Shown piece after piece: positions 23,541 to 54,858 of a DNA stretch of 64,000 nucleotides. The translations under genes were made by a program, and so were the position numbers. The notes under the pieces were generated by a model. It was not told where the DNA came from and ran no database searches. It saw only the letters and a program-made list of their open reading frames with translations. The stretch is from Candidatus Uhrbacteria bacterium. GTDB taxonomy: Bacteria; Patescibacteriota; Patescibacteriia; 2-12-FULL-60-25. Location: assembly GCA_016222815.1 (NCBI GenBank), contig JACRQE010000002.1, positions 1 through 64,000 of the forward strand. Reading direction: 5' to 3'. Positions within the stretch are counted from its first letter, which is position 1. Each line of letters begins with the position of its first letter.

Positions 23541-24012
23541 TTGGGCTGGACAGATGGCTGCTTCGCAAAGGCGCAAGCCCCAGCGGGGAGGAAAGTCCGG
23601 ACACCCGCCCCGACGTAAGTCGGGGTGTCGCGAGAGCCGCTAACGGCGGCCAGGATATAACGGAGTGAATGATGACATCGTGGCGTCCTGCCAAAAGCAG
23701 GAAATCGCGTCCAAAGTTTCTCCGCAAACCTAGGGAAAGTGCCACAGAGACAATACTAGCCGTTGCAAGACGGTGAAAGGTGAAAAGTGAAATGGTGTGG
23801 TCAGCCTCGGCTGACTGCTACGTTTCTCGGCCGATGGCAACGTCGGTTCGTGGCAAACCCTCTCTGGTGCAAGAGCAAGATCCGATTTCCGCGCAAGCGG
23901 GATGAGGAACTGGTAGCTCGCACGAGGTGATGAGCAATCATCATCCCAGATAGATGGCCATCCGGTCTGACGCAAGTCGGGCCGACAAAATTCGGCTTAT
24001 CGTCCAGTCTAG
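23541..24012 (+). ncRNA. rnpB: RNase P RNA (bacterial type A-like)
   Basis: The catalytic RNA of RNase P, which matures tRNA 5' ends. Conserved blocks are present in order: GAGGAAAGTCCGGAC (P4 5' strand region) near 23587, GCCACAGAGACAATAC near 23742, AGATAGATGGCCATC near 23948 and ACAAAATTCGGCTTA near 23985. P1 is closed by GGCTGGAC (about 23544-23551) with GTCCAGTC (24002-24009). A purine-rich, low-complexity stretch near 23772-23795 looks like a lineage-specific expansion. Exact ends are estimated from P1 and the promoter. Confidence 0.95.
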
Positions 24013-24017
24013 ACATG

Positions 24018-49645: not shown

Positions 49646-49658
49646 TTTTCCAAAAAAA

Positions 49659-50027
49659 TCACGGAAACGGACGGAATGACCGGACGTCCCGGGATTCTGC
49701 AGCTGTCAACACTTTCTTATCGGTTAATACATCCACCAGTCTTCCGACCTGCCGGTCTTCTTTGCGCATCATGGACACCATATCGCCTTTCAGATCACCG
49801 AGCTTATCGTCCAAGTAATTCTTAGTGACCATAGTCGCCTCGATTCTTCCAAGTCTAGATTCAAGGCTGGTGGTCTTGGAATCAAGGCTGTTTACTCTTG
49901 CATCGAGACCACCGATTCTTGAATTAACTTTTTCAAAACCATCATCCATCTTGTCGGATAGTTCTTGCACAGTCTCCGCGAGGAGACTAACGGCCTCTAA
50001 AATCTCATGTTTGGCTTCGTCCTCCAT
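49659..50027 (-). CDS. Coiled-coil protein, left copy of a duplicated pair
   Basis: A 122-residue helical protein: MEDEAKHEILEAVSLLAETVQELSDKMDDGFEKVNSRI, a heptad region GLDARVNSLDSKTTSLESRLGRIEATMVTKNYLDDKLGDLKGDMVSMM, then RKEDRQVGRLVDVLTDKKVLTAAESRDVRSFRPFP. It is closely similar to the protein at 54413-54769, including the ends and the upstream DNA, with divergence in the middle. Function unknown; it looks like a trimeric or dimeric coiled-coil. The pair brackets the TIGR-like locus. Confidence 0.75.
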   Translation of the reverse strand: MEDEAKHEILEAVSLLAETVQELSDKMDDGFEKVNSRIGGLDARVNSLDSKTTSLESRLGRIEATMVTKNYLDDKLGDLKGDMVSMMRKEDRQVGRLVDVLTDKKVLTAAESRDVRSFRPFP

Positions 50028-50089
50028 ATACTATATTGCTACCACGCTTGGATAGTTCAGTACAAGACGTGACAGCTAAGCGATTTTTC

Positions 50090-51094
50090 TTACTTTTCCA
50101 CACTTAAAGAGGAGATGCTTCCCTGCCAGCTTTCCTTATCGGTCTCACTACGTACCACCAGGAGTTCGTCAGCCGTGAGCTCGATGCCTTTGAGCAGCGG
50201 CGATGCGTTGAGACGTTCGAGAATTTTTTCGTCTGTCATTTGGATTGGATCTTCGCTTCCGACTGGAGAATCGAGCTGGATGACCACAGGTTTTTCGCGG
50301 AGCTTCACGTGTGAATGTGTTTTGATGACGCGGACGGCCAATGCCACACCTTCGAGGAGTTCTTCGACCGGCATGCCGGGATGGAGGTTGTATGCGGCGT
50401 TGCGCGTGGCCGACCAGGCGCGTGGCAGTTCTCCGACATAAATGCGGTTGCCGGAGTGGACGCGGTCCTTCGGACCAACGCCATCGGCTTTGGAAATACC
50501 CACGGACTCAACCAATCGGTTGCGGGCATAATCGGCGGCGGCCGGAATTATAGAATCGCCAATCGGTTCCAAACCATGGTCATCGGTATCGTAGAAAGCG
50601 GTTACAAAATTTGCGCCCGCGAATTCAGGACGCGACTTGAGATCGGTCGCTAGATTGGAAAAATATTCAGTCAGCGCCGCTTCATCGTTCTTGAAAGCCG
50701 CGCATCCAGCATGTCCGTCGCCGCTGCATTTGTGCGGAAAAAGATAGATATTGATTTCCTTGCCGGACTTCCGGGCTTCTTCGATTTGCGGTCCGTAGAG
50801 CTTCAGGAGTGTCTCGGCCGTGACACGACCGCCGGGCGAGGAAAAACTTTCGACGGCGCCGAGAGGTTCGCCGGTCGCTTCGTTCTGGAACGTGTTGCGT
50901 TCGTCCATGCAGCCGACGACCACACCAAAGGCTTTGGCCCTCCTCGCTTCACGAGCTTCACGCTGGGATGCGAACTCGGCGACAGCTTTCGTACGGTCCT
51001 GTTCGAGAAGTTGGAGTTCGCGCTCCTTTTGGGCTTCGCGCTCGGCATGGCTGACCGGCAATTCTTTGAGATCACTAAGTGTTTCGAATGACAT
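50090..51094 (-). CDS. Carbonic-anhydrase-like protein (beta class-like motifs), unknown role
   Basis: A 334-residue protein. After an N-terminal charged helix (about 15-55) come GVVVGCMDERNTF, ESFSSPGGRVTAETL and IYLFPHKCSGDGHAGC. This order (C-x-D-x-R, then a GGR loop, then H-x-C with a further H and C) resembles the zinc site of beta carbonic anhydrases (CxDSR...HxxC). The rest (FYDTDDHGLEPIGDSIIPAAADYARNRLVESVG, LPRAWSATRNAAYNLHPGMPVEELLEGVALAVRVI) is not typical, so this may be a distinct metal-binding family. The start at 51094 is preferred over 51106. Confidence 0.6.
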   Translation of the reverse strand: MSFETLSDLKELPVSHAEREAQKERELQLLEQDRTKAVAEFASQREAREARRAKAFGVVVGCMDERNTFQNEATGEPLGAVESFSSPGGRVTAETLLKLYGPQIEEARKSGKEINIYLFPHKCSGDGHAGCAAFKNDEAALTEYFSNLATDLKSRPEFAGANFVTAFYDTDDHGLEPIGDSIIPAAADYARNRLVESVGISKADGVGPKDRVHSGNRIYVGELPRAWSATRNAAYNLHPGMPVEELLEGVALAVRVIKTHSHVKLREKPVVIQLDSPVGSEDPIQMTDEKILERLNASPLLKGIELTADELLVVRSETDKESWQGSISSLSVEK

Positions 51095-51197
51095 AGTTGA
51101 AAGCAATTATACACGGCTACCATCTAAAACCCAGACAGAACCACTATTTTACCAAGAATTGTTGCAATCTTAGCCAAAATATTGGGACCTGACACCC

Positions 51198-51226: not shown

Positions 51227-51245
51227 AATCAATCACCAAACTTAG

Positions 51246-52028
51246 CACCCTCTTCGGAGATTCCGAAAACTCAGACTTTCCGAAGAGGGTGCGACAGGAT
51301 TTGCGTTGAAATAACGAACGCGGGAATGCACCCTCACAATCTCGGCGGACGACTACCGAGGTGCGAGAAATCACGTGAAGAAGCCTGTCCGCCTTCAATC
51401 TTGCGGGACGAATGTAGGTCTGTTTCTAGTGAAGCGAAGATCGGCTTGTCCCGCTCGGGTGCAGCGGCAACGCTGCACCCGCCTTCTTCGGAAATTCTTG
51501 ATGAAACGGAATTTGCGAAGAGGGTGCGACGAGGACGATGTCGAACGACGCCTGGACGGCTGCACCCTCAATATTTTGGCCCGTCTGACGGACCTTCAAA
51601 CTCGCGGGACGACAAGGATGTTGTTTCAAACGAAACGACGATGCCCGTGTCCCGCCCGGGTGCAACGGTAACGCTGCACCCGCCCTCTTCGGAGATTCTG
51701 ACGAATCGGAATCTGCGAAGAGGGTGCGATGGTTCAACTGTCGAAAGATGATCCCCAGCCTGCACCCTCACAATCTAGGCGGACGATCAAGACAGTGCGA
51801 GTAATCACGTGACACGAGATGTCCGCCTTCGATCTCGCGGGACGAACGTTGGAGTGTATCCAAAGAAATGAAAGAAGCTTTGTCCCGCTCGGGTGCATCG
51901 GCAACGATGCACCCACCTTCTTCGGAGAATCTGGGTCCCCGCCTGCGCGAGGACGACGAAATAGGCGGATTTTCCGAAGAGGGTGCGAGTACGGCTGCGT
52001 CGAAAGACGACCGTTGGTGTGCACCCTC
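51246..52028 (+). repeat. TIGR-like guide array 1 (nine units, 18 nine-base spacers)
   Basis: The higher-order order is: conserved hairpin CCCTCTTCGG...CGAAGAGGG; unit in stem GAGGGTGC/GCACCCTC (type 1); unit in GGCGGAC/GTCCGCC (type 2); unit in GCGGGAC/GTCCCGC (type 3); hairpin GGGTGCA...TGCACCC. Each unit is spacer A (9), hairpin core, spacer B (9). Type 1: 51295-51326 caggatttg/acgcgggaa; 51530-51560 cgaggacga/ctggacggc; 51730-51760 tggttcaac/tccccagcc; 51989-52019 gtacggctg/ccgttggtg. Type 2: 51353-51385 ctaccgagg/gaagaagcc; 51787-51819 tcaagacag/gacacgaga. Type 3: 51412-51446 atgtaggtc/agatcggct; 51613-51647 caaggatgt/cgatgcccg; 51846-51880 acgttggag/aagaagctt. Core lengths are 13-14, 15 and 17 for types 1-3. 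The second block lacks a type 2 unit, and the fourth has only type 1. Confidence 0.9.
51915..51983. repeat. Array hairpin enlarged by a CCCCGCCTGCGCGAGG-type repeat
   Basis: The conserved CTTCTTCGGAGAATC...GGATTTTCCGAAGAGG hairpin carries an extra GGGTCCCCGCCTGCGCGAGG palindrome, with GACGACGAAAT after it, in its loop (about 51932-51962). The other copies of this hairpin have only about 10 loop bases. It appears to be an insertion of an interspersed repeat into the array. Confidence 0.7.
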
Positions 52029-52151: not shown

Positions 52152-53804
52152 ATGAAAGACACCAGGTTTGTCGGAATCCGCCACCGCGTCAAGAAGACTG
52201 CCGAAGGCGAAGCCCGCCCGACGCAAGTCGCCATCCTCGCTGATTCCAAGGTCAAGTCCATTGACCTGGAGGACGAGCGAGCCGAGCTCGATTTCGTGCT
52301 CGGCATTTTCCCGGTCAAGTTCCGAGTAGTGGAACCCGAGGAAGACCTCACGCCGTTCGCCAAGCATCACGTCAAGTGGCGCAAGGCCAAGGCTGGCGAG
52401 GACCTCGAAGCTCTGCCCGAAAGCCACCGCACGCTCATCGAAAAGAAACTGCATGTGGCTGACAAGGTTCCGGCGGCCTACGAAGGACTGAAGGATGGCG
52501 ACACGGTCGCTATGTCCCTCGGCGGCTCCGGAGACTATCTGGCCTTCGCGCTCTCGCGTCAGGCGGACAAAGTCGGTGCCCAAGTCTTCCGCATCCCGCC
52601 GTTCCACCTCAAGGATCAGCGGCCGACCGCGGACAAGGACAGTGACGCCCAGCTCATGGCCGAGCTCGTGCGCGACAAGCGCCCGCTCTTCCGCCCGGTC
52701 ACGCCCCGCGACCGCGACCAGCTCCTTCTGCGCATCCGTTACCGCGGGTTCGAGGAAGCCATGAAGGCGCGCATCGCGACCGAACAGCGGCTGTACCAGC
52801 GGCTCATCGGCGAGATCTTCACCCAGCCCGACGGGCTCTATCCCGAAGGCGATTTGGAAGAAGCGTTCAAGGCGGCCAAGGCCAACGACAAGATCCTCAA
52901 GTCCCAAACGGCCGAAGAAGCTGCGCGCGAACGTGACATGCTCGCGGCGCTCCAAAAGCTCGAAGCCTTCAAGGTCATGGGGCCCGTCGAAGGCGTGGGA
53001 CCGCGCATCGCCGGACGGCTCACGGCCGCGGCGCTCGTCAATCTCGGACGCTTCGTGGTCAAGCCAGACGAAGCTGAGATTGAGAAACTACGCGTTGAAG
53101 CCACGGAATGGGCCAAGGTCGCGGAATGCGAGACGACCGGCATCGAGCGCAAGCCCAACGAAGCGCGGCGCGAATACTACTTCCGCGTGCGCCAAGTCTT
53201 GCTCGAACGCGGCGAAACCGACCGCTCCGAATCGCTCCAGGAAGCCATCAACTGCCTGGATCGCATCCGGAAGATCAAGCGCAAGGCAGAAGCCAAGAGC
53301 TGCAACAAGTTCAAGGCGTACTGCGGCGTCCACGTGTTCCAGGGCGGCAAGCACGGCGAACAGGCCGAGGAAGCGCAGTTCCCGCGGCGGCGCGGCGACC
53401 AGGTGGCCAACTGGTCGGGCACGGCGCGGCAGGCGTTCTTCCTGGTCGTGGACCAGTTCAACAAGCGGCCGGACAGCAAGTGGGGCAAGTACCTGCGCCA
53501 GATGAAGGCCAACCAGCGCAAACTGCATCCCGAACCCATCAAGGTCCCGTCGCTGAACAAGGACGGCACGCCCAAGCTCAACAAGAAGTCGGGCGAGCCC
53601 ACCCTGGTCAGCCGCTACACGGACGGTCACATCCACAAGCGCGCAGTCTGGCGCACGGCCACGAGATTCGCGGAATGGTTGTTCCGCGAGCTCGTCAAGT
53701 TTGAGACCGGCGCCACGACCGCACCTCCGGCCAAACTGCCCGAGCACAAAGGCGACACTCTACCATCGCCGCAGATGGCCGAGCCGGCCGCCTTGTCAGC
53801 CTAG
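52152..53804 (+). CDS. Tas-like / IS110-like Nop-type protein embedded in the guide array
   Basis: A 550-residue cytoplasmic protein. The N-terminal part (about 20-190) follows the IS110 DEDD/RuvC-like layout: VAILADSK (Asp31), GSGDYLAFALSRQADKVGAQVFRIPPFHLK, ADKDSDAQLMAELV (161-172, matching K-T-D-x-x-D-A), KRPLFRPV, then a helical EQRLYQRLIGEIF. The Glu normally after the second strand is not evident. A coiled-coil section (about 230-275) leads to GPVEGVGPRIAGRLTAAALVNLGRF (277-301), the IS110/Nop-type helix-hairpin-helix. The C-terminal region (KFKAYCGVHVFQGGKHG...RRGDQVANWSGTARQAFFLV) parallels the IS110 serine domain but has Gly where the catalytic Ser-Gly lies. The charged C-terminus is Pro-rich at the end. 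Array units begin 5 bases after its stop. I infer an RNA-guided binding protein, possibly nuclease-dead. Confidence 0.75.
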   Translation: MKDTRFVGIRHRVKKTAEGEARPTQVAILADSKVKSIDLEDERAELDFVLGIFPVKFRVVEPEEDLTPFAKHHVKWRKAKAGEDLEALPESHRTLIEKKLHVADKVPAAYEGLKDGDTVAMSLGGSGDYLAFALSRQADKVGAQVFRIPPFHLKDQRPTADKDSDAQLMAELVRDKRPLFRPVTPRDRDQLLLRIRYRGFEEAMKARIATEQRLYQRLIGEIFTQPDGLYPEGDLEEAFKAAKANDKILKSQTAEEAARERDMLAALQKLEAFKVMGPVEGVGPRIAGRLTAAALVNLGRFVVKPDEAEIEKLRVEATEWAKVAECETTGIERKPNEARREYYFRVRQVLLERGETDRSESLQEAINCLDRIRKIKRKAEAKSCNKFKAYCGVHVFQGGKHGEQAEEAQFPRRRGDQVANWSGTARQAFFLVVDQFNKRPDSKWGKYLRQMKANQRKLHPEPIKVPSLNKDGTPKLNKKSGEPTLVSRYTDGHIHKRAVWRTATRFAEWLFRELVKFETGATTAPPAKLPEHKGDTLPSPQMAEPAALSA

Positions 53805-53808
53805 TCTT

Positions 53809-54364
53809 GGGGACGTCTGTCTTCTTGGCCTGAAAGAGGTCGATCAAGAACCTGTCCCCCTCCCCCACACCAATGTGAATTGGTGTGGGGGCCTTCTTCG
53901 AAGATTCTGACGACTCGGAATCTGCGAAGAGGGTGCGTCCACTGCGTTGTCGGATGACGACGGTTGTCGTGCACCCTCACTATCTTGGCGGACGACGAGC
54001 ATGTAGCGGTAAATCGCGATGTTCGACTTGTCCGCCACCAATCTCGCGGGACGTACAAGGCGGTGTTCAACAGAACGATCACGTCTTTGTCCCGCACGGG
54101 TGCACCACACGGTGCACCCGCCCTCTTTGGAGGTTCTGATGACTCGGAATCTGCGAAGAGGGTGCGATCAACTCGGTGTAGAGATACGATCGTAGCGTTG
54201 CACCCTCACTATCTTGGCGGACGAATGGCGGGTTGCGAGAAATTGCGAACGGAAGGATGTCCGCCACCAATCTCGCGGGACGAAAGAGTGCGTGCTTCGA
54301 TAGGAACGTTGGTCGAAATGTCCCGCTCCCCCACACCAATGCGAATTGGTGTGGGGGAATTTTT
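53809..54364 (+). repeat. TIGR-like guide array 2 (seven units, 14 nine-base spacers)
   Basis: It starts 5 bases after the tas stop with a variant type 3 unit in stem GGGGAC/GTCCCC: 53817-53852, spacers ctgtcttct/tcaagaacc, 18-base core. A CCCCCACACCAAT...ATTGGTGTGGGGG hairpin follows, then two full blocks. Type 1: 53939-53969 ccactgcgt/cggttgtcg; 54168-54198 tcaactcgg/tcgtagcgt. Type 2: 53996-54028 cgagcatgt/tgttcgact; 54225-54257 atggcgggt/acggaagga. Type 3: 54055-54087 acaaggcgg/tcacgtctt; 54284-54318 aagagtgcg/tggtcgaaa. The GGGTGCA...TGCACCC hairpin separates the blocks. No spacer is repeated within or between arrays, whereas the stems are nearly invariant. Confidence 0.9.
54327..54364 (+). 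terminator. Terminal hairpin of array 2
   Basis: Stem TCCCCCACACCAAT / ATTGGTGTGGGGGA followed by ATTTTTAT. An almost identical hairpin lies at 53861-53892 within the array but lacks the T run. The position suits the end of a plus-strand transcript. Confidence 0.7.
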
Positions 54365-54393: not shown

Positions 54394-54412
54394 GCTGACA
54401 TAAACAAATCAC

Positions 54413-54769
54413 TCACGGAAATGGACGGTACGACCGGACATCCTTGGATTCTGCCATGGTCAAGACTTTTTTATCGGTTAATACCTCCACCAATCTTCCA
54501 ACCTGCCGGTCTTCTTTGCGCAGCATTGAAACCATATCGCCTTTCAAGTCGCCAAGTTTATCGTCCAGATAGCTTTTGGTGACCATGGTAGCTTTAATCA
54601 TAGTCACATCTGACTTGAGGCTGCTCACATCTGATTTAAGACTGCTCACATCTGACTTGAGGCTGCTCACGTCTGACTTGACGCCACCTAAGTCGTTCGA
54701 CAGATCCTGGACCTGATCGGCCAGCAGGCTGATGGCTTCTAAAATCTCATGTTTGGCTTCGTCCTCCAT
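54413..54769 (-). CDS. Coiled-coil protein, right copy, with 7-residue tandem repeats
   Basis: A 118-residue paralogue of 49659-50027. The N-terminus MEDEAKHEILEAISLLADQVQDLSNDLGG and the C-terminus ATMVTKSYLDDKLGDLKGDMVSMLRKEDRQVGRLVEVLTDKKVLTMAESKDVRSYRPFP match closely. The middle is replaced by SSLKSDV repeated about four times, encoded by 21-base tandem DNA repeats (about 54603-54680). Each repeat is one coiled-coil heptad, so copy-number change would lengthen the rod without frameshift. Function unknown. Confidence 0.75.
   Translation of the reverse strand: MEDEAKHEILEAISLLADQVQDLSNDLGGVKSDVSSLKSDVSSLKSDVSSLKSDVTMIKATMVTKSYLDDKLGDLKGDMVSMLRKEDRQVGRLVEVLTDKKVLTMAESKDVRSYRPFP
54603..54680. 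repeat. 21-base in-frame tandem repeat (heptad coding)
   Basis: About four copies of TCTGACTTGAGGCTGCTCACA-like units (small variations such as GATTTAAGA), encoding successive SSLKSDV heptads in the coiled-coil gene. Confidence 0.85.
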
Positions 54770-54858
54770 ATACTATATTGCTACCATGCTTGAGTGACGT
54801 ATCGCAAGGCATGACAACATAGCCACGAATCACTCTTTTCCACACTCGTAGAGCTGGT

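What the first reader, a model, noticed from the sequence alone, without database searches (positions are those of the whole stretch)
51246..52028. Higher-order array built from three different stem types in a fixed order
Published dual-spacer arrays are usually drawn with one repeat type. Here GAGGGTGC, GGCGGAC and GCGGGAC stems alternate as 1-2-3 and each block is closed by constant hairpins (CTCTTCGG... and GGGTGCA...), giving a super-repeat of roughly 220-240 bases. Using different stems would stop neighbouring units from mispairing in one transcript, and might assign guides to different complexes.
Basis: partly seen in the sequence, partly recalled or inferred. Interest (0 to 1): 0.78.

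Follow-up and report, generated by a model that had tools for sequence, protein, structure and literature searches.

The report
Ordered multi-stem TIGR guide-RNA array
In a small Patescibacteria (CPR) bacterium, an array of paired-guide RNAs of the recently described TIGR-Tas kind is built from three different hairpin stems that follow one another in the same order, and this ordering turns out to be a rule across distant relatives, which gives a handle on how such arrays fold and grow.

Summary
At 51245-52028, nine dual-spacer units use three private stems (GAGGGTGC, GGCGGAC, GCGGGAC) in the order 1-2-3, 1-3, 1-2-3, 1, with constant hairpins between blocks. A second array, 1-2-3-1-2-3, follows the gene (53892-54358). 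The gene between them (52152-53804) encodes a Tas protein: NCBIfam TIGR_Tas_endo E 3.7e-28 (99 bits, cut-off 100), and its family profile hits PDB 9mty. This is a TIGR stem-loop array of the CPR clade with an apparently dead RuvC domain, described by Faure et al. 2025. What I did not find described is the ordering. A relative in another genus (79% identical Tas) keeps all three stems and the order with new spacers. Over 17 Patescibacteria loci, 149 of 166 successive steps follow each type's usual successor (94.5 expected); same-type neighbours occur twice (41 expected). Each block begins with a hairpin (HA) whose 3' arm overlaps only the first unit's stem. Likeliest mechanism: stems that differ between neighbours keep units in register in one transcript, and arrays grow by in-phase block copying. 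Separate complexes per type are not supported (one Tas gene, same box motifs). Processing, targets and HA's role are untested.

The parts
51245..51292 (+). HA hairpin of block 1; 3' arm overlaps the 5' arm of unit 1a
   Evidence: inverted repeat I7, 22-nt arms, 86% complementary; helix score 17.5
51285..51335 (+). unit 1a, stem GAGGGTGC; spacers CAGGATTTG / ACGCGGGAA
51344..51393 (+). unit 2a, stem GGCGGAC; spacers CTACCGAGG / GAAGAAGCC
51403..51454 (+). unit 3a, stem GCGGGAC; spacers ATGTAGGTC / AGATCGGCT
51456..51481 (+). HB hairpin CGGGTGCAGCG-GCAA-CGCTGCACCCG closing block 1
51482..51524 (+). HA hairpin of block 2, overlaps unit 1b
51520..51569 (+). unit 1b
51604..51655 (+). unit 3b (unit 2 of this block is lost; remnant about 51578-51593)
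51657..51682 (+). HB hairpin closing block 2
   Evidence: I3
51683..51724 (+). HA hairpin of block 3, overlaps unit 1c
   Evidence: I10
51720..51769 (+). unit 1c
51778..51827 (+). unit 2c
51837..51888 (+). unit 3c
51891..51914 (+). HB hairpin closing block 3
51916..51983 (+). HA hairpin of block 4 with a longer GC-rich loop, overlaps unit 1d
51979..52028 (+). unit 1d, last unit before the gene (the relative also ends its upstream array on unit 1)
52152..53804 (+). tas gene (550 aa): Nop/IS110-like Tas protein, RuvC-like N-terminus without the first acidic residue, about 80-aa insertion in the Nop region
   Evidence: NCBIfam NF052498 E 3.7e-28; family profile to PDB 9mty E 1.2e-17; alignment A1
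53861..53891 (+). HB-like hairpin CCCCCACACC..GGTGTGGGGG before array 2
53892..53933 (+). HA hairpin, overlaps unit 1e
53929..54095 (+). units 1e, 2e, 3e (53929-53978, 53987-54036, 54046-54095)
54097..54120 (+). HB hairpin CGGGTGCACC-ACAC-GGTGCACCCG
54121..54162 (+). HA hairpin, overlaps unit 1f
54158..54326 (+). units 1f, 2f, 3f (54158-54207, 54216-54265, 54275-54326)
54327..54358 (+). intrinsic-terminator-like hairpin with ATTTTTAT tail ending array 2

Best explanation
This is a TIGR stem-loop array serving one Tas protein of the Patescibacteria (CPR) clade whose RuvC domain looks dead. SHOWN BY SEQUENCE: each unit is stem-CGA-[9 nt spacer A]-TG..short hairpin..CGA-[9 nt spacer B]-T-stem. 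Neighbouring units carry different private stems, in a cyclic order kept within loci and between lineages. Each block opens with a hairpin (HA) that shares GAGGG with the first unit's stem. INFERRED: one transcript folds into independent units; each pair of box signals binds one protomer of a Tas dimer; the two spacers pair with opposite strands of a DNA target, which is bound and not cut. Because units are only 8-9 nt apart, identical neighbouring stems would let the 3' arm of one unit pair with the 5' arm of the next. Alternating stems fix the register, which is why same-type neighbours are almost absent. Arrays grow by copying whole blocks in phase, which preserves the 1-2-3 order, and the spacers then turn over completely.
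For: Protein: NCBIfam TIGR_Tas_endo 99 bits, cut-off 100, E 3.7e-28; five of six relatives tested exceed the cut-off (109.9-133.8 bits); family profile to PDB 9mty E 1.2e-17. Unit grammar, at positions not used for detection: loop TG in 166 of 217 units (7% shuffled), loop CG[AT] in 136 of 217 (2%), both in 121 (under 0.5%); loop stem of 3 or more pairs in 112 of 128 against 17% shuffled. Order: L005/L036 (79% identical Tas, other genus) has the same three stems, 1-2-3 in every full block, all spacers new. 17 loci: modal transitions 149/166, shuffled mean 94.5 and maximum 109; same-type neighbours 2, shuffled mean 41.4 and minimum 23. Between lineages, 56 of 57 close class pairs run 1<2<3. In-phase copying: all 7 unit pairs sharing 12 or more of 18 spacer bases are same-type pairs, none of 1165 different-type pairs. 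HA: helix score 11.5-19.5 on first-of-block units in WIN, L036, L045 and L049, against a shuffled 95% point of 9.5. Register: uniform stems lower correct folding from 0.82 to 0.66.
Against: The folding benefit is modest and absent in L041 and L075. In the global fold the type-1 units of array 1 are not predicted to form, because HA takes their 5' arm. Shared descent plus block duplication could explain the order with no folding advantage. The three stem classes used for the between-lineage count were defined after seeing the data. No target was found. No RNA data exist here. Structure prediction failed and was then switched off.
Confidence: 0.66

Rival explanations
1. The fixed order is only inheritance: an ancestral block of several stem types is copied by tandem duplication or gene conversion, and no advantage attaches to different neighbouring stems.
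For: Near-identical copies are always in phase with type: 7 same-type pairs, 0 different-type pairs. Order is kept between genera. Blocks have constant borders.
Against: Spacers of same-type units are at background (5.1 of 18 identical against 4.7 for different types) while stems stay identical, so neutral drift after duplication does not fit. Loci with quite different stem sets and 2 to 6 types nearly all avoid same-type neighbours. No good array with a single stem type was found.
Confidence: 0.35
2. The stem classes are functional labels: class 1, overlapped by HA, is conditionally folded, so its guides are made only when HA is opened, while classes 2 and 3 are constitutive.
For: HA overlaps only the first unit of each block, in WIN 6 of 6, L036 6 of 6, L045 4 of 4, L049 7 of 7, and less strongly L082 and L056; L075 has a similar hairpin on another type. 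In array 1 predicted stem probability is 0.0-0.1 for type 1 and 0.94-0.99 for type 3.
Against: Type-1 units in array 2 fold at 0.09-0.81 depending on unit and settings. Several ordered arrays show no HA (L041, L046, L062, L064, L069, L074). All types carry the same protein signals.
Confidence: 0.2
3. HA and HB are processing or insulation hairpins that separate blocks (for example sites cut by an RNase III-like enzyme) and have nothing to do with unit choice.
For: They lie at block borders in both arrays and in L005, and HA is long (22-nt arms in block 1). Faure et al. saw cleavage at linkers of a stem array (PMC12045711).
Against: A pure insulator would not need to share GAGGG with the first unit's stem, yet that overlap recurs in divergent loci.
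Confidence: 0.35
4. A box C/D-snoRNP-like RNA methylation guide array rather than a DNA-binding one.
For: Box-like motifs, Nop-type protein, RuvC without its first acid; Faure et al. suggested this clade as a possible intermediate (PMC12045711).
Against: No fibrillarin over cut-off in 11 Tas-bearing genomes, while the control rings in archaea.
Confidence: 0.05

Closest known systems
TIGR stem-loop arrays with TasA, Peromyscus gut contig (Faure et al. 2025, PMC12045711)
   Same: two short spacers per unit, box C/D-like signals, palindromic arms instead of edge repeats, sub-arrays around one Tas gene
   Different: there the arms are described as variable; here a small set of fixed stems recurs in a fixed order, loops are true repeats, and HA/HB hairpins frame each block
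CPR TasR clade with inactive RuvC, Nop insertion and stem arrays (same paper)
   Same: host group, missing acidic residue, Nop insertion, stem array; this locus very probably belongs here
   Different: the text I could read does not mention ordered stem types or the hairpin overlapping unit 1; the supplement was not readable
Dual-repeat TIGR arrays (TaTIGR, FpTIGR)
   Same: 9-nt spacers, box D TG and a box C shared by edge and loop, unit core of 34-38 nt
   Different: edge repeats there are 8-12 nt with only two pairs; here edges are 7-8 bp stems separated by linkers
IS110 bridge RNA / transposase
   Same: distant protein homology
   Different: no transposase-level match (30.7 bits, cut-off 140), an array instead of one two-loop RNA
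Archaeal/eukaryotic box C/D snoRNP
   Same: Nop-type protein and paired guides
   Different: no fibrillarin, no K-turn boxes, many units in arrays

Membership tests
TIGR-Tas | Nop-domain Tas protein encoded beside the array | tested here: met
   NF052498 99 of 100 bits for the window protein (split by an insertion), 109.9-133.8 bits in five of six relatives tested, 95.3 in the sixth; profile to 9mty E 1.2e-17. Strictly, the window protein is one bit under the curated cut-off.
TIGR-Tas | units with two short (about 9-nt) spacers, unrelated from unit to unit | tested here: met
   9/9 nt in nearly all 31 units of the window and L036; spacer identity at background
TIGR-Tas | box C and box D signals equivalent in edge and loop | tested here: met
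   TG/CGA in both; loop signals in 166/217 and 136/217 units against 7% and 2% shuffled
TIGR-Tas | processing into about 36-nt guides | not testable with these tools
   needs RNA sequencing
TIGR-Tas | tandem-spacer DNA targeting | tested here: inconclusive
   no site with 2 or fewer mismatches in the window outside the arrays; at 3 mismatches 8 sites against a re-paired control of mean 4.0, maximum 8; one exact pattern absent from the genome
TIGR stem-array subtype, CPR inactive-RuvC clade | palindromic arms flanking each unit | tested here: met
TIGR stem-array subtype, CPR inactive-RuvC clade | RuvC domain lacking its catalytic acids | tested here: inconclusive
   none of the 46 readable rows has an acidic residue at the GI-x position (37 read RHR); the other acids were not placed because no structure model could be made
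TIGR stem-array subtype, CPR inactive-RuvC clade | Patescibacteria host | tested here: met
   nearly all of the 48 relatives are named as Patescibacteria/CPR MAGs, the rest are unnamed or uncultured bacteria
box C/D snoRNP | fibrillarin methyltransferase partner | tested here: not met
   0 of 11 genomes over cut-off
IS110 | IS110 transposase | tested here: not met
   NF033542 30.7 bits against cut-off 140; PF01548 21.7 against 29

The most novel reading that the evidence does not exclude
The three stem classes are conserved functional labels (AGGGT[AG]C, then [GT]GCGGAC, then GYGRGAC) kept in order across deep Patescibacteria lineages. The HA hairpin that overlaps only the first unit of each block is an RNA switch that decides whether that unit's guide is made, so that the array is a regulated multi-guide programme rather than a plain list of guides.
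Probability: 0.2. Interest if true: 0.85.

Novelty: new variant of a known kind. Interest (0 to 1): 0.62.

Why it matters
How TIGR arrays arise, are maintained and expand is named as an open question by their discoverers (PMC12045711). A family-wide rule (neighbours differ, order is cyclic, copies are in phase with the block) makes two answers testable: stems that differ between neighbours as register control, and block-wise copying as the growth step. The HA overlap adds a concrete, testable control point. For design of multi-guide TIGR constructs it suggests avoiding equal neighbouring stems.

Tried and rejected
Rfam: nothing but RNase P and a tRNA in the window, so not a known RNA family. 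PADLOC: no hit. Viral contigs: three scans, no relative, so no sign of a phage home for this clade. PDB by the single sequence: none, found only with the profile. Targets: no enrichment. Fibrillarin partner: absent. The apparent single-stem exception L038 shows a second, imperfect stem type between its GCGGGAC units when read by eye. First calls used wrong gene coordinates. One folding script timed out. A first order survey missed the window through a name clash and was redone.

Full report
WHAT IS THERE. The stretch 51245-52028 holds nine hairpin units with exact 7-8 bp arms and 34-38 nt inside. Resampled sequence of the same stretch gives 0.65 such units on average, 4 at most. Three stems occur, in the order 1-2-3, 1-3, 1-2-3, 1. 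Block 2 has lost unit 2. Between blocks lie HB (CGGGTGCA..TGCACCCG) and HA (C(C)CTCTTCGG..CGAAGAGGG). Super-repeats are 235, 200, 259 and 229 bases.

UNIT ANATOMY. Every type has the same plan: arm ending in C, GA, 9-nt spacer A, TG, short hairpin, CGA, 9-nt spacer B, T, arm starting with G. Units were chosen by their outer arms only, so the inner signals are an independent test. Across 217 units of the family, TG sits at the expected place in 166 (7% in shuffled interiors), CG[AT] in 136 (2%), both in 121 (under 0.5%). The loop's own stem has 3 or more pairs in 112 of 128 against 17% shuffled. In TIGR guide RNAs the anchors are UG (box D) and CCA (box C), they can diverge between arrays, and they covary between edge and loop (PMC12045711); here they read TG and CGA and match between edge and loop in the same way.

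THE PROTEIN. The gene product scores 99 bits with NCBI's TIGR-Tas model, whose cut-off is 100, in two stretches around an insertion. Of six relatives tested, five score 109.9-133.8 and the 79% relative 95.3. A profile of eleven relatives finds PDB 9mty at E 1.2e-17. That chain has 331 residues, the length the TIGR-Tas paper gives for TaTasR; that they are the same protein is my inference. The N-terminal strand reads GIRHR where an acidic residue would be expected; none of 46 readable family members has one there. This fits the CPR TasR clade with inactive RuvC, Nop insertions and stem arrays (PMC12045711). The genome has one Tas gene.

IS THE ORDER A RULE? A relative in another genus (G032, L005/L036; 79% identical) has the same three stems and 1-2-3 in every full block before and after the gene; its upstream array also ends on unit 1, and no spacer is shared. 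A scan of one genome per species gave 48 loci, nearly all named as Patescibacteria. In the 17 loci with at least five units and two types, 149 of 166 successive steps follow the commonest successor of their type; shuffling labels within loci gives 94.5 on average, never above 109 in 2000 trials. Same-type neighbours occur twice; shuffles give 41.4, never under 23. The number of types runs from two to six. The steps are not independent (blocks are copies of one another), so these counts show that the rule holds and are not p-values for its cause. Locus by locus the order is clear in WIN, L036, L037, L041, L045, L049, L064 and L075; others are too short to tell, and L040, L069 and L082 do not follow it cleanly.

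BETWEEN LINEAGES. Stem classes recur: AGGGT[AG]C or AGGGGAC, then [GT]GCGGAC, then GYGRGAC. Of 57 closely spaced pairs that fall in two of these classes, 56 run in the order 1<2<3, in ten of eleven loci. The classes were drawn up after seeing the data and the arms are purine-rich, so this is suggestive only. The Tas tree is nearly a star, so it cannot say whether the order is ancestral.

THE HA HAIRPIN. For each unit I measured the best upstream helix reaching at least four bases into its 5' arm. First-of-block units score 16.5-19 (window), 12.5-18.5 (L036), 11.5-16 (L045), 12-19.5 (L049) and 9.5-11.5 (L082). Other types mostly sit at the shuffled background (median 6.5, 95% point 9.5). In L037 a similar but interrupted hairpin is visible by eye, although this measure did not score it. 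In the window, HA and unit 1 compete for GAGGG. In a global fold, types 2 and 3 form (0.93-1.0, except 2a) and the type-1 units of array 1 do not (0.0-0.1), while in array 2 one of the two does.

HOW IT MOST LIKELY WORKS. Shown: anatomy, protein kinship, order, near absence of same-type neighbours, in-phase copies (all 7 spacer-sharing pairs are same-type), HA overlap. Inferred: one transcript, unit-by-unit processing, Tas binding, DNA binding without cutting. With linkers of 8-9 nt, equal neighbouring stems could pair across the linker. Replacing all stems in an array by one lowers mean predicted correct folding from 0.82 (perfect native arms) to 0.66. The effect is large in L037 and about nil in L041 and L075, so register control is plausible but not proven as the selective reason. 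Block copying explains how the order is kept, and does not by itself explain why stems stay constant while spacers are randomised.

WHAT FAILED OR STAYS OPEN. No target was found. Sites with three mismatches in the window number 8 against a mean of 4.0 and a maximum of 8 for re-paired spacers. The target layout used (spacer A, then the reverse complement of spacer B, gap 0-2) is my reading of the 8-nt 3' overhangs reported for TasR. No fibrillarin partner exists in 11 genomes. No relatives were found among viral contigs. The supplement of the TIGR-Tas paper, which may show some of these arrays, could not be read; novelty of the ordering is judged from its main text and from one review.

Noticed in passing
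49651-50104 and 54405-54846: Two diverged direct copies (about 71% identical over 400 bp) of a small coiled-coil gene frame the Tas locus. The same-genus genome G007 (L095) has sequence for one copy beside infB and no Tas match, which suggests a lineage-specific gain or loss of roughly 4.7 kb.
   Followed up: partly
50090-51106, minus strand: A 338-aa open reading frame beside the array, inside the framed segment, with no Pfam or NCBIfam match.
   Followed up: partly
51930-51966: HA of the last block in array 1 carries a GC-rich stretch (GGGTCCCCGCCTGCGCGAGGACGACGAAATAGGCGGA) not found elsewhere in the window.
   Followed up: partly
L006:2265-4700: A much more distant Tas in the same family (G001) has units with another box C (CT instead of GA) and appears to repeat GCGCGGC then GAGAGGAC both before and after its gene, so ordered stems may reach beyond this clade.
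   Followed up: no
23542-24015: Bacterial class A RNase P RNA, 161 bits.
   Followed up: no
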